Origin: Flavobacteriaceae bacterium | GTDB lineage: Bacteria; Bacteroidota; Bacteroidia; Flavobacteriales; Flavobacteriaceae | DNA: 40,728 nt | Assembly: GCA_013002065.1 (NCBI GenBank) | Contig: JABDKT010000020.1 | Location: 1-40,728, forward strand | Direction of reading: 5' to 3' | Part shown: piece after piece, positions 5,646-39,258 of the stretch | Position numbering within the stretch: the stretch's first letter is position 1 | How the letters are laid out: every line of letters begins with the position of its first letter | Program-made: the position numbers and the translations under genes | Notes under the pieces: model-generated | The model's database searches: none | Told to the model about the DNA's origin: nothing | What the model saw: only the letters and a program-made list of their open reading frames with translations

Positions 5646-5655
5646 CTTCAATTTT

Positions 5656-5769
5656 GCGTTAGTGATAGTAACGGCATCCCCTCCTTCACTGCTTTGCAGT
5701 TAATGGAGGGATATAGTGAATAGCACGACCCTTCGAAGCAATGTATCATTGCGAAGTAGGGTAACGCCC
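5656..5769 (-). repeat. Structured Bacteroidota-type intergenic element in the metH leader
   Basis: On the minus strand it begins with GGGCGTTACCC and ends with CTAACGC, its ends pairing as GCGTTA/TAACGC (5762-5767 with 5656-5661). Inside are two strong hairpins: 5728-5762 (ACCC/GGGT with CTTC/GAAG and GCAATG/CATTGC) and 5676-5712 (ATCCC/GGGAT, CTCC/GGAG, ACTGC/GCAGT). From memory it resembles a dispersed intergenic element of flavobacterial genomes (GGGCGTT...GGGTCG.GCTAT...ATGCCG...CTAACGC); this is unverified. It fills the leader between the SAM-I aptamer and the metH start. Confidence 0.6.
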
Positions 5770-5780
5770 TAAAAAATAAA

Positions 5781-5914
5781 TATCAAGAAAGTAGGTAGAA
5801 GTACCTGTTTGTGTGTTATCTATTTCGTTAAACGAATAGAATGTAGCACCTTCTCTGTTCGGACAAAGGGTTGCTAAGGCTTCACAGGGTCTATTCCCTC
5901 CACCTTTCTTGATA
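5781..5914 (-). promoter_or_regulatory. SAM-I (S-box) riboswitch upstream of metH
   Basis: Minus strand shows the S-box core: TATCAAGAAAGGTGGAGGGA, then GACCCTGTGAAGCCTTAGCAACCC, AAGGTGCTACATTCT and AGATAAC. P1 is a perfect 11-bp helix: TATCAAGAAAG (5904-5914) with CTTTCTTGATA (5781-5791). P4 is AGGTA-CTTC-TACCT. Right after P1 comes a U-rich tract (5771-5780), and no separate terminator/antiterminator pair is obvious. SAM binding should reduce expression of the metH-PLP enzyme-metH-metF operon. Confidence 0.93.
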
Positions 5915-5942
5915 ACTTGTTAACATGCAAATGAACTGAGTA

Positions 5943-10763: not shown

Positions 10764-10913
10764 TTATAAAGAATGATCTTCCAATTAGGGTAATTGGGCA
10801 GGTCGTTATCTATCTCCGGAATAATTCCGACGTAGAATTTAGCACCTTCTTCGTATAGAACGAAGGGTTGCTAAGGCTTCAAAGGGTCTATTCCCTCCAC
10901 CTTTCTTGATAAC
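10764..10913 (-). promoter_or_regulatory. SAM-I (S-box) riboswitch upstream of metB
   Basis: Minus-strand core: TTATCAAGAAAGGTGGAGGG, GACCCTTTGAAGCCTTAGCAACCC, AAGGTGCTAAATTCT, AGATAAC. P3-region stem CTTCG/CGAAG is present, and P4 is a perfect CCAATTA-CCC-TAATTGG hairpin. P1 pairs TTATCAAGAA with TTCTTTATAA (10764-10773) with one mismatch. P1 is again followed by a short U-rich tract. The 80 nt to the start codon hold only a small CGTC/GACG hairpin. Expected effect: SAM lowers expression of metB and the four genes behind it. Confidence 0.93.
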
Positions 10914-10943
10914 ATTTCAATAAAGTTTTGAACTTTGTGAGTA

Positions 10944-36506: not shown

Positions 36507-37772
36507 ATGGAAATTTTTACTGCAAATAATATATGGATGATGTTGTGTACAGCATTGGTGTTTTTTATGCATCTTGGTTTTGGACTGCTAGAAATTGGCC
36601 TTACCCGTCCTAAAAATACCATTAATGTTCTTTTCAAGAATATTTTTATCATCACCGTAGGCTTACTTCTCTACTATATTGTTGGTTTTAATTTAATGTA
36701 TCCCGGAGAATTTAACGGCTTTATTGGCTCAATAGTTCCCGGGATTGCCCCTCCTGAAAACGGGATGACTCCAGATTATGCAGACGGAGGATACACCTGG
36801 TGGACCGATTTTCTATTTCAGGGAATGTTCGCAGCCACTGCTGCCACCATTGTATCTGGAGCTGTAGCGGAACGTATCAAAATTGGCCCCTTTATGATTT
36901 TCACCATTATCTATGTGGGAATTGTATATCCCATAGCCGGTTCATGGCAATGGGGAGGTGGATTTCTTTCCACTCTCGGAAACGAAGTAAATGAAGCAGG
37001 TGAATTAATAAAAGAAGCCGGATTCTACGATTTCGCGGGATCGACACTTGTACACTCGGTTGGCGGCTGGGCTGCCCTAATTGCCGTTTGGTTGCTGGGC
37101 TCAAGAATTGGCAAATTCAAAGACGGAAAACCCCGCGCTATTCCCGGCCACAATATCCCGCTGGCGACGGCAGGAGTTCTCATACTCTGGCTAGGTTGGT
37201 TTGGATTTAACGGAGGTTCGGTACTTTCGGCAGATCCCGAAGCCACTTCACTTACACTTGTCACCACATGTCTTGCAGCAGCATCGGGAGGAGTCGCAGC
37301 TTTTTTAACATCCACGGTACTATACAGAAATCTCGATCTTACCATGTTCCTAAACGGAATCCTAGGAGGCTTGGTCGCCATCACAGCAGGTGCAGATCAA
37401 ATGAATCCCAATGAGGCCGTCATCATAGGAATTATTGGTGGGATTATTATTGTTTTGGGTGTCGCACTCATCGACAGATTCCTAAAACTGGACGATCCAG
37501 TGGGCGCCATAGCCGTTCATCTAATTTGCGGAATATGGGGAACACTGGCAGTAGGGATATTTGGCGCCAAAGCTGGATGGGAGCAATTTTCTTATCAGCT
37601 TGCAGGTGTAGGATGCTATGCTGCTTTCTGTATCATCACCTCATTTATTATCATTTTTGCCCTAAAGAAGACAGTAGGAATACGTGTTTCGGAAAAAGAA
37701 GAAATGGAAGGACTAGATCTTCACGAGCATGGAATGACTGCTTACCCAGATTTCAGACTTAACGAACATTAA
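36507..37772 (+). CDS. amtB: Ammonium transporter
   Basis: Inner-membrane ammonium channel, 421 residues, with 11 hydrophobic segments expected. Conserved pore features: phenylalanine-gate region FLFQGMFAATAATIVSGAVAER around 103-123, DFAGSTLVHSVGG (175-187) with the structural Asp and pore His183, AVHLICGIWG (336-345) with pore His338, and LGWFGFNGGS (229-238). There is no cleavable signal peptide of the E. coli kind; the first helix starts near residue 9. Last gene of the operon, followed by a strong terminator. PII just upstream is the expected regulator. Confidence 0.97.
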   Translation: MEIFTANNIWMMLCTALVFFMHLGFGLLEIGLTRPKNTINVLFKNIFIITVGLLLYYIVGFNLMYPGEFNGFIGSIVPGIAPPENGMTPDYADGGYTWWTDFLFQGMFAATAATIVSGAVAERIKIGPFMIFTIIYVGIVYPIAGSWQWGGGFLSTLGNEVNEAGELIKEAGFYDFAGSTLVHSVGGWAALIAVWLLGSRIGKFKDGKPRAIPGHNIPLATAGVLILWLGWFGFNGGSVLSADPEATSLTLVTTCLAAASGGVAAFLTSTVLYRNLDLTMFLNGILGGLVAITAGADQMNPNEAVIIGIIGGIIIVLGVALIDRFLKLDDPVGAIAVHLICGIWGTLAVGIFGAKAGWEQFSYQLAGVGCYAAFCIITSFIIIFALKKTVGIRVSEKEEMEGLDLHEHGMTAYPDFRLNEH

Positions 37773-37792
37773 GGGTTGTTTTGTTAATTGCG

Positions 37793-37828
37793 AAACGCCG
37801 TCACGAATATTTTGTGGCGGCGTTTTTT
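37793..37828 (+). terminator. Intrinsic terminator after amtB
   Basis: Stem AACGCCG/CGGCGTT extended by CAC/GTG, loop AATATTTT-type, followed by six T. Strong plus-strand terminator that isolates amtB from the metK promoter. Confidence 0.85.
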
Positions 37829-37853: not shown

Positions 37854-37884
37854 TTTCAAAATGTAACAGATTTATGTACATTTG
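37854..37884 (+). promoter_or_regulatory. metK promoter
   Basis: -33 TTTC (37854-37857; one mismatch to TTTG), 19-nt spacer, -7 TACATTTG (37877-37884; full match). Start near 37891, immediately before the riboswitch, giving a leader of about 110 nt. Confidence 0.6.
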
Positions 37885-37894
37885 TGCGCTGAAT

Positions 37895-37944
37895 GAGGAA
37901 AGATTTGACTGATTGCAACCTCGAAAAAAAATGCTAAAGGCAGT
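37895..37944 (+). promoter_or_regulatory. SAM-II-like riboswitch upstream of metK
   Basis: H-type pseudoknot of the SAM-II fold: P1 GAGG/CCTC (37895-37898 with 37919-37922), enclosing GATTTGAC and GATTGCAA; then an A-rich loop, ATGCTAAAGG and CAGT. The pseudoknot pairs ACTG (37908-37911) with CAGT (37941-37944) and GCA (37915-37917) with TGC (37932-37934). GATTTRAC, TTGCA and GCTAAA are the conserved SAM-II core as I recall it; SAM-V shares a similar core. Upstream of SAM synthetase, it fits end-product control. Confidence 0.8.
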
Positions 37945-37957
37945 GCAAACTACCTTC

Positions 37958-37976
37958 GACGCTCACGTCAAATCTT
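37958..37976 (+). promoter_or_regulatory. Possible expression platform of the metK riboswitch
   Basis: GTCAAATCTT (37967-37976) is perfectly complementary over 10 bp to AAGATTTGAC (37900-37909) in the aptamer. It competes with the aptamer loop and pseudoknot and also with a local GACG-ctca-CGTC hairpin (37958-37969). No U-tract follows, so translation or RNA stability may be the target. Confidence 0.5.
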
Positions 37977-38001
37977 CACAATTTTTAAAGTAGTACCATT
38001 T

Positions 38002-39258
38002 ATGGCGTATTTATTTACTTCAGAAAGTGTTTCTGAAGGACACCCGGATAAAGTAGCAGATCAAATTAGTGATGCTCTTATTGATAATTTTTTGGCTTTC
38101 GATCCACAATCTAAAGTGGCTTGCGAGACCCTCGTTACTACGGGACAGGTTGTGCTTGCCGGTGAAGTAAAATCGAAGGTGTATTTGGATGTTCAGAAAA
38201 TTGCAAGGGATGTGATCAATAAAATAGGTTATACCAAAGGGGAATATCAATTCGATGGAAATTCCTGTGGGGTTTTATCGGCCATACACGAACAAAGCGA
38301 CGATATAAATCGCGGAGTAGATCGAGAAAACGAAGATGAACAAGGCGCCGGTGACCAGGGAATGATGTTTGGTTATGCAACCATAGAAACCGATCACTAT
38401 ATGCCGTTGGCATTGGATTTGTCTCATATTATTTTGAAGGAACTGGCTGCATTGCGACGTGAAAATAATGAAATCGATTACCTAAGACCCGATTCTAAGA
38501 GTCAGGTGACTATAGAATACAATAACGACAACAAACCCATTCGAATCGATGCCATTGTAATTTCTACGCAACACGACGATTTTGATGAAGATGATGATAG
38601 AATGCTCGCAAAAATTAAGAATGACATGATCAACATTCTTATTCCGAGAGTTAAGGCAAAATGTAAGTCGGAGATACAAGATTTATTTAACGATGATATC
38701 AAGTTTCATATCAATCCCACTGGAAAATTCGTAATTGGCGGACCTCACGGAGATACCGGCCTCACCGGCCGAAAAATTATTGTGGATACTTACGGCGGAA
38801 AAGGAGCACACGGTGGTGGCGCCTTTAGCGGCAAAGACCCAAGTAAAGTGGATCGATCTGCAGCCTATGCAACACGACATATAGCCAAGAATTTAGTGGC
38901 CGCCGGATTATGTGATGAAGTATTGGTTCAGGTGAGTTATGCAATTGGAGTGGTAGAACCCATGGGTATTTTTGTAAATACCTACGGAACGTCCAAAGTG
39001 GATTTGACCGACGGAGAAATCGCTAAGAAAGTTTCAGAATTATTTGATATGAGACCTTCGGCCATTGAGAAGAGACTCAAATTGAGGCAACCTATGTATT
39101 CTGAAACAGCTGCCTACGGACATATGGGCAGAACCAATGAAGTGGTAACCAAAACTTTTTATACTCCCGATCACAGAGAGAAGACGTTAGAAGTTGAATT
39201 ATTTACCTGGGAGAAATTGGATTATGTGGATGCCGTGAAGAGCGCTTTCGGACTGTAA
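38002..39258 (+). CDS. metK: S-adenosylmethionine synthetase
   Basis: Makes SAM from methionine and ATP. 418 residues, somewhat longer than E. coli MetK (384). Seen: [17 protein letters not shown] (5-21) with the ATP/substrate His14, [12 protein letters not shown] near 115, [21 protein letters not shown]-region P-loop (two stretches, [13 protein letters not shown] and IIVDTYGG) and [17 protein letters not shown]-type methionine/metal site. A short acidic insert around 195-205 (DDFDEDDD) is present, which adds part of the extra length. Single gene with its own promoter, riboswitch and terminator. Confidence 0.98.

What the first reader, a model, noticed from the sequence alone, without database searches (positions are those of the whole stretch)
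37895..37944. SAM-II-like riboswitch on metK in a genome region that also uses SAM-I
The metK leader has the SAM-II core (GATTTGAC, ATTGCAA, ATGCTAAAGG) with P1 GAGG/CCTC and pseudoknot pairs ACTG/CAGT and GCA/TGC, while two SAM-I aptamers control methionine genes about 27-32 kb away. Two unrelated SAM-sensing folds thus divide the pathway: one on methionine synthesis, another on SAM synthesis. SAM-II is best known from Alphaproteobacteria; its use on metK in a flavobacterium is noteworthy.
Basis: partly seen in the sequence, partly recalled or inferred. Interest (0 to 1): 0.75.

Follow-up and report, generated by a model that had tools for sequence, protein, structure and literature searches.

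The report
SAM-II switch with fold-back platform

Summary
Two SAM-I aptamers (82.1 and 77.0 bits) precede methionine-synthesis genes.

It is not unusual for the clade. RF01726 was defined in Bacteroidetes in 2010, occurs in 283 of 299 genomes of this family, and 91 of 120 carry SAM-I as well. A 2007 survey had found no species with both.

Between aptamer and start codon, GTCAAATCTT (37967-37976) is a perfect reverse complement of the aptamer core AAGATTTGAC (37900-37909). Across 150 metK leaders the platform is complementary to the aptamer beyond shuffles (mean z -2.8). Forty relatives conserve both mutually exclusive folds, with compensatory changes. SAM-I leaders show the same property (-3.8); TPP leaders of the family do not (-0.4).

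Best model: without SAM the leader folds back and leaves the metK start open; SAM locks the aptamer and frees the platform strand, which closes the start in some relatives. In the window itself that last step is not predicted, so the readout is inferred. New variant of a known kind.

The parts
37792..37826 (+). intrinsic terminator of the upstream ammonium-transporter gene (36507-37772); implies metK has its own transcript
   Evidence: terminator-like site, 16 pairs then T-run; Pfam Ammonium_transp
37877..37884 (+). probable Bacteroidota -7 promoter element TAnnTTTG (TACATTTG), 10 nt before P1, so the transcript would start at the aptamer
   Evidence: sequence; TAnnTTTG within 40 nt upstream of P1 in 158 of 166 leaders, 8.2 expected from shuffles
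37889..37947 (+). SAM-II aptamer (RF01726)
   Evidence: 64.3 bits, E 2.8e-10; pair conservation
37895..37898 (+). P1 5' strand GAGG, pairs with CCTC 37919-37922
37900..37909 (+). AAGATTTGAC: aptamer core and first two bases of the pseudoknot strand; also the 5' arm of the fold-back helix
   Evidence: perfect 10-nt inverted repeat with 37967-37976
37908..37911 (+). pseudoknot P2 strand ACTG, pairs with CAGT 37941-37944
37915..37917 (+). GCA, pairs with TGC 37932-37934
37937..37944 (+). AAGGcAGT at the aptamer 3' end: competing hairpin arm of the SAM-free state, pairs with ACTaCCTT 37949-37956 (7 of 8) across the loop GCAA
   Evidence: sequence; helix 2, 84% of cells paired
37949..37956 (+). ACTACCTT: platform strand that pairs with the aptamer 3' end without SAM; could weakly pair with GTAGT 37990-37994 with SAM (not conserved)
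   Evidence: L001 z -1.3, not significant
37967..37976 (+). GTCAAATCTT: anti-aptamer element, 3' arm of the fold-back helix; about as conserved as the aptamer core in 40 relatives
38002..39258 (+). metK, SAM synthetase; start codon just past a 54-nt platform that follows the aptamer match
   Evidence: Pfam S-AdoMet_synt N, M and C domains
10803..10915 (-). SAM-I aptamer upstream of Cys/Met PLP enzyme and homoserine dehydrogenase
   Evidence: 82.1 bits; Pfam
5813..5918 (-). SAM-I aptamer upstream of homocysteine S-methyltransferase, PLP enzyme, B12-dependent methionine synthase and MTHFR; also followed by an anti-aptamer strand (CTTTCTTGATA)
   Evidence: 77.0 bits

Best explanation
The metK leader is a SAM-responsive OFF switch made of a standard SAM-II aptamer and a fold-back, anti-aptamer expression platform. 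Shown by sequence and comparison: (a) the aptamer; (b) a downstream strand that is the reverse complement of the aptamer core, conserved with compensatory changes, so that the leader can form one of two mutually exclusive folds. Inferred: (c) without SAM the platform invades the aptamer (AAGATTTGAC/GTCAAATCTT plus AAGGcAGT/ACTaCCTT), building a long hairpin that ends about 25 nt before the AUG and leaves the A/U-rich start region single-stranded, so metK is translated; (d) with SAM the pseudoknot holds GATTTGAC and CAGT, the platform strand is set free and lowers expression. In a subset of relatives (streamlined marine lineages and some others) the freed strand is itself complementary to the bases just before the AUG, which would close the start. 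In the window's own genus that last step is not predicted, and the readout could instead be an exposed Rho-loading site. Translational readout is favoured because Bacteroidota lack Shine-Dalgarno recognition and initiation there is tuned by mRNA structure at the start (PMC6847099, PMC9976891).
For: Aptamer. Perfect 10-nt inverted repeat. The GTCAAATCT element is about as conserved as the aptamer core in 40 relatives while its surroundings vary. Fold-back pairs form in 88.0% of cells and fall to 28-54% when partners are slid; 8 two-sided cells against 2.5 in shuffles, 0 of 500 reaching it. Across 150 metK leaders aptamer-platform duplexes have mean z -2.8 and 72% have p<=0.05. Exact hexamers complementary to aptamer segments are enriched against reversed and complemented controls: CAAATC in 52 leaders, CTTTAG 31, GCAATC 21, controls 0-3. 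Covariation of A/G before GATTTG with T/C after CAAATC: 30/3 against 2/15, Fisher p 4e-8; of GCTAAAR with YTTTAG: p 0.002. Fold-back energy -16.3 against -12.3 kcal/mol for shuffled platforms; cost of opening the start region rises from 3.1 to 5.0 kcal/mol when the aptamer is locked (shuffles 4.3 to 4.6, p 1e-15). Start-closing hairpins in a subset. Specificity: TPP leaders of the same family show nothing, mean z -0.36.
Against: In the window alone the complementarity is only p 0.02, and locking the aptamer barely changes start opening (3.9 to 4.1 kcal/mol; +0.2 against +0.3 in shuffles). Its closest relatives show no significant start-closing hairpin either. RNAalifold run without guidance on the 40 sequences did not choose the fold-back helix. 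Leaders are related, so pooled z and Fisher values overstate independence; a tree-based test had only two well-supported independent pairs and decided nothing. No binding or expression data exist here.
Confidence: 0.7

Rival explanations
1. Same aptamer and fold-back, but the readout is transcriptional: SAM frees a C-rich, G-poor strand that loads Rho before metK; without SAM this strand is locked in the hairpin.
For: The window's own start region is not predicted to close. The platform is C-rich and largely unstructured once the aptamer is excluded. No intrinsic terminator lies between aptamer and AUG.
Against: C-richness follows from complementarity to the purine-rich aptamer. In the pooled set start accessibility does shift beyond shuffles, and a subset has explicit start-closing hairpins. 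No Rho test was possible.
Confidence: 0.25
2. The aptamer works as SAM-II does elsewhere, by directly hiding the ribosome site or feeding an intrinsic terminator, and the complementarity is incidental.
For: This is the accepted mode for SAM-II (PMC10907184, PMC1273637, PMC9373788).
Against: The AUG is more than 50 nt past the aptamer and the phylum does not use Shine-Dalgarno pairing (PMC6847099, PMC9976891). A T-run follows the TCAAATC element in only 2 of 48 leaders. The complementarity is conserved, covaries and beats shuffles.
Confidence: 0.08
3. The inverted repeat is a DNA site (a dimeric regulator) or a decoy structure unrelated to SAM sensing.
For: Inverted repeats often mark protein-binding sites (general knowledge); the arms are perfect.
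Against: The arms are 57 nt apart with variable spacing between relatives; one arm is the invariant aptamer core; other lineages use complements of other aptamer segments; G-U pairs are accepted.
Confidence: 0.04
4. The fold-back hairpin is the OFF state and SAM switches metK ON (feed-forward).
For: The long hairpin exists without ligand and the window has a short T-run after it (CACAATTTTT).
Against: The T-run is not conserved (2 of 48); feed-forward control of SAM synthetase by its product would be metabolically odd; the start region is more open in the fold-back state.
Confidence: 0.06

Closest known systems
RF01726 SAM-II (formerly 'SAM-II long loops'; Weinberg et al. 2010, PMC2864571)
   Same: Aptamer sequence, P1, pseudoknot, phylum; the match is full length and 20 bits over threshold.
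   Different: The Rfam model stops at the aptamer. No platform is described in the passages of the main text found here; the paper's additional files could not be opened.
SAM-II of Alphaproteobacteria (RF00521; metX, metA, metZ)
   Same: Same fold class and conserved core; upstream of Met/SAM genes.
   Different: Scores only 15.4 bits against 36. There SAM hides the Shine-Dalgarno sequence or forms a terminator; here neither is present.
Competing-fold platforms of other riboswitches (general model, PMC2258182)
   Same: A ligand-stabilised aptamer strand pairs with platform sequence when no ligand is bound.
   Different: Here the platform pairs with the conserved ligand-binding core itself and often with most of the aptamer, in a phylum without Shine-Dalgarno recognition, and two unrelated SAM classes share the layout.

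Membership tests
SAM-II (RF01726) | covariance-model match above the curated threshold | tested here: met
   64.3 bits against 44
SAM-II (RF01726) | P1 plus H-type pseudoknot supported by relatives | tested here: met
   98.4% of cells paired, 3 pairs with two-sided changes
SAM-II (RF01726) | conserved core GAUUUG, UGAUUGCA, UGCUAAAG | tested here: met
SAM-II (RF01726) | placed before a methionine/SAM gene | tested here: met
   metK by Pfam; metK in 160 of 167 related leaders, 152 by motif and 8 read from their translations
SAM-II (RF01726) | binds SAM and discriminates SAH | not testable with these tools
   needs in-line probing or ITC
SAM-II canonical mechanism | Shine-Dalgarno sequence inside P2 next to the AUG, or an intrinsic terminator after the aptamer | tested here: not met
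   AUG more than 50 nt downstream; no terminator on the + strand after the aptamer; phylum without SD use (PMC6847099)
SAM_alpha (RF00521) | covariance-model match above threshold | tested here: not met
   15.4 bits against 36
SAM/SAH and SAM-V | covariance-model match above threshold | tested here: not met
   absent from the lists
fold-back (anti-aptamer) platform | platform strand complementary to the aptamer core beyond shuffles, conserved with compensatory changes | tested here: met
fold-back (anti-aptamer) platform | freed platform strand closes the start region (window's own leader) | tested here: not met
   opening cost 3.9 against 4.1 kcal/mol; z -1.3

The most novel reading that the evidence does not exclude
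Flavobacteriia, whose ribosomes ignore Shine-Dalgarno sequences, have evolved a shared riboswitch output: the platform is a near-complement of the aptamer itself, it dissolves the sensor when SAM is scarce, and when SAM is bound it is released to capture the start region. Two structurally unrelated SAM classes (SAM-I and SAM-II) acquired this same fold-back design, often at one back-to-back locus, while TPP riboswitches of the same family did not.
Probability: 0.4. Interest if true: 0.7.

Novelty: new variant of a known kind. Interest (0 to 1): 0.5.

Why it matters
SAM-II is the textbook case of a riboswitch that works by hiding the Shine-Dalgarno sequence, and Bacteroidota do not use that sequence, so how SAM-II can regulate there has been open. 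A conserved anti-aptamer platform gives a concrete, testable answer and a rule for predicting switch points in this phylum. [quoted passage not shown]

Tried and rejected
Intrinsic-terminator readout: rejected, T-runs after the element in 2 of 48 leaders and no + strand terminator after the aptamer in the window. A conserved mini-hairpin GACG/CGTC (37958-37961/37966-37969) as a bound-state partner: 78.6% of cells pair, but covariation does not exceed shuffles; left open. Start-closing hairpin ACTAC/GTAGT in the window: not conserved and not significant. Guide-free RNAalifold on 40 sequences returned the P1 stem and a local GAUU pairing, not the fold-back. Tree-based test of covariation: undecided, short metK stretch and weak branches. 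The general explanation 'all riboswitches here look like this' was rejected with TPP leaders. Bacteroidales leaders (GTGG-type P1) show a weaker signal, mean z -1.3, n 14.

Full report
WHAT WAS CLAIMED AND WHETHER IT IS THERE. The finding names a SAM-II-like element before metK and two SAM-I elements elsewhere in the window. All three are confirmed by Rfam covariance models: SAM-II RF01726 at 37889-37947 (+), 64.3 bits against a threshold of 44, and SAM-I at 10803-10915 (-) and 5813-5918 (-) with 82.1 and 77.0 bits. They are kept in 98.4% of cells of a 40-sequence alignment, three of them with two-sided changes. The downstream ORF is SAM synthetase. The SAM-I elements precede a Cys/Met PLP enzyme with homoserine dehydrogenase, and a homocysteine methyltransferase / methionine synthase / MTHFR set. 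The genome assembly holds one SAM-II and two SAM-I in all.

HOW ORDINARY IT IS. RF01726 was described from Bacteroidetes and marine samples in 2010 (PMC2864571), and SAM-II was reported from the Bacteroides group in 2005 (PMC1273637). Here the model matches in 8 of 9 genomes of the window's genus, 283 of 299 of the family and 172 of 246 of the order. Of 167 related leaders extracted, 160 precede metK (152 found by motif, 8 more by reading their translations). The closest named metK genes come from Flavobacteriaceae such as Patiriisocius marinus. The division of labour is also common: 94 of 120 family genomes have SAM-I, and all but three of those (G056, G074, G126) also have SAM-II, so 91 carry both. 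A 2007 survey found no species with both classes (PMC2258182), and a phrase search found no other paper on the point. In 41 genomes whose two elements were listed on one contig (coordinates typed by hand), SAM-I and SAM-II are divergent in 30 and lie within 500 nt in 9, six of those 126-129 nt apart.

Between aptamer and start codon the window holds GTCAAATCTT (37967-37976), a perfect reverse complement of AAGATTTGAC (37900-37909) in the aptamer core. In addition, AAGGcAGT at the aptamer's 3' end can pair with ACTaCCTT just behind it, across the loop GCAA. Both helices use bases that the SAM-bound pseudoknot needs, so the two folds exclude each other. Minimum-energy folding of the leader gives the fold-back.

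IS IT MORE THAN CHANCE. For the window alone the aptamer-platform duplex beats shuffles only modestly (z -2.8, p 0.02). The comparative evidence is stronger. In 40 relatives the GTCAAATCT element is nearly invariant while the bases around it vary. The fold-back pairs form in 88.0% of cells against 28-54% when slid, with 8 two-sided cells where shuffles give 2.5. Over 150 metK leaders the mean z is -2.8 and 72% have p<=0.05. Hexamers complementary to aptamer segments are strongly enriched over reversed and complemented controls (52, 31 and 21 leaders against 0-3). Different lineages target different segments: the GATTTG core, the GATTGC loop, or the GCTAAAG strand. Two positions covary: A/G before GATTTG with T/C after CAAATC (30/3 against 2/15, p 4e-8), and GCTAAAG/GCTAAAA with CTTTAG/TTTTAG (p 0.002). 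These p values ignore relatedness. A tree-based test on a short metK stretch was inconclusive, and unguided RNAalifold did not pick the helix.

HOW IT MOST LIKELY WORKS. A promoter element TAnnTTTG lies within 40 nt of P1, mostly 8-18 nt before it, in 158 of 166 leaders (8 expected), so transcripts should start at the aptamer. With the aptamer free to pair, the fold-back dominates (-16.3 against -12.3 kcal/mol with shuffled platforms) and the start region is easier to open than in shuffles. With the aptamer locked, the cost of opening rises by 2.0 kcal/mol against 0.3 in shuffles. In a subset, mainly small-genome lineages, the strand behind the aptamer is complementary to the bases just before the AUG, for example GTTGCTTTTA/TAAAAGCAAC in L010. 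This fits an OFF switch: SAM locks the aptamer, frees the platform strand, and the start is closed. It suits a phylum whose ribosomes do not recognise Shine-Dalgarno sequences and whose initiation depends on structure around the start (PMC6847099, PMC9976891). For the window's own genus the start-closing step is not predicted (3.9 against 4.1 kcal/mol), so a Rho-type readout is the main rival. An intrinsic terminator is unlikely.

A WIDER PATTERN. The two SAM-I leaders of the window and 40 from relatives were tested for a downstream strand complementary to the first bases of their aptamer: mean z -3.8, 71% below -2; of the window's own two, one is z -1.6 and the other -0.4, so the signal there rests on relatives. 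TPP leaders from the same family, tested the same way, do not show it (mean z -0.36, n 27). Bacteroidales SAM-II leaders show it more weakly. The fold-back layout is therefore shared by two unrelated SAM classes in this family and is not a general property of its riboswitches.

VERDICT. Observation confirmed; identity correct; rarity not supported. The platform makes it a new variant of a known kind. SAM binding, direction of control and readout are inferred, not shown.

Noticed in passing
window 5782-5918 (-) and L250-L289: SAM-I leaders of Flavobacteriaceae have a downstream strand complementary to the 5' end of the SAM-I aptamer (GTTATCAAGAAAGG / CTTTCTTGATAAC-like), mean z -3.8 over 42 leaders.
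   Followed up: partly
window 5651-5734 (+): A Flavo-1 RNA match (RF01705, 45.2 bits) lies on the opposite strand between a SAM-I aptamer and the homocysteine methyltransferase start; the stretch is strongly palindromic (CCCTCC..GGAGGG).
   Followed up: partly
L038, L065, L053, L128 and other family genomes: SAM-I and SAM-II are often back to back and divergent, several at 126-129 nt, suggesting an ancestral shared met/metK regulatory region; in the window they are 27-32 kb apart.
   Followed up: partly
L012:1510-2624, also L040 and L042: In small-genome flavobacteria a SAM-II element with a slightly changed core (GATTTGATTGATTGC) precedes queF, followed in L012 by a membrane-protein ORF that resembles DUF6580; a possible SAM link to queuosine, or a ligand variant.
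   Followed up: partly
L034, L057, L062: In genus g5, whose member G012 has no SAM-I match, SAM-II stands before a Cys/Met PLP enzyme and before DUF6580, as if SAM-II took over the SAM-I role; DUF6580 may belong to methionine or SAM metabolism.
   Followed up: partly
L171 (Patiriisocius marinus), about 1300-1500: A variant aptamer (GAGGCCAGATTTGACTGCTTGCTCCCTC) keeps the platform element CGTCAAATCT, fold-back z -5.9.
   Followed up: no
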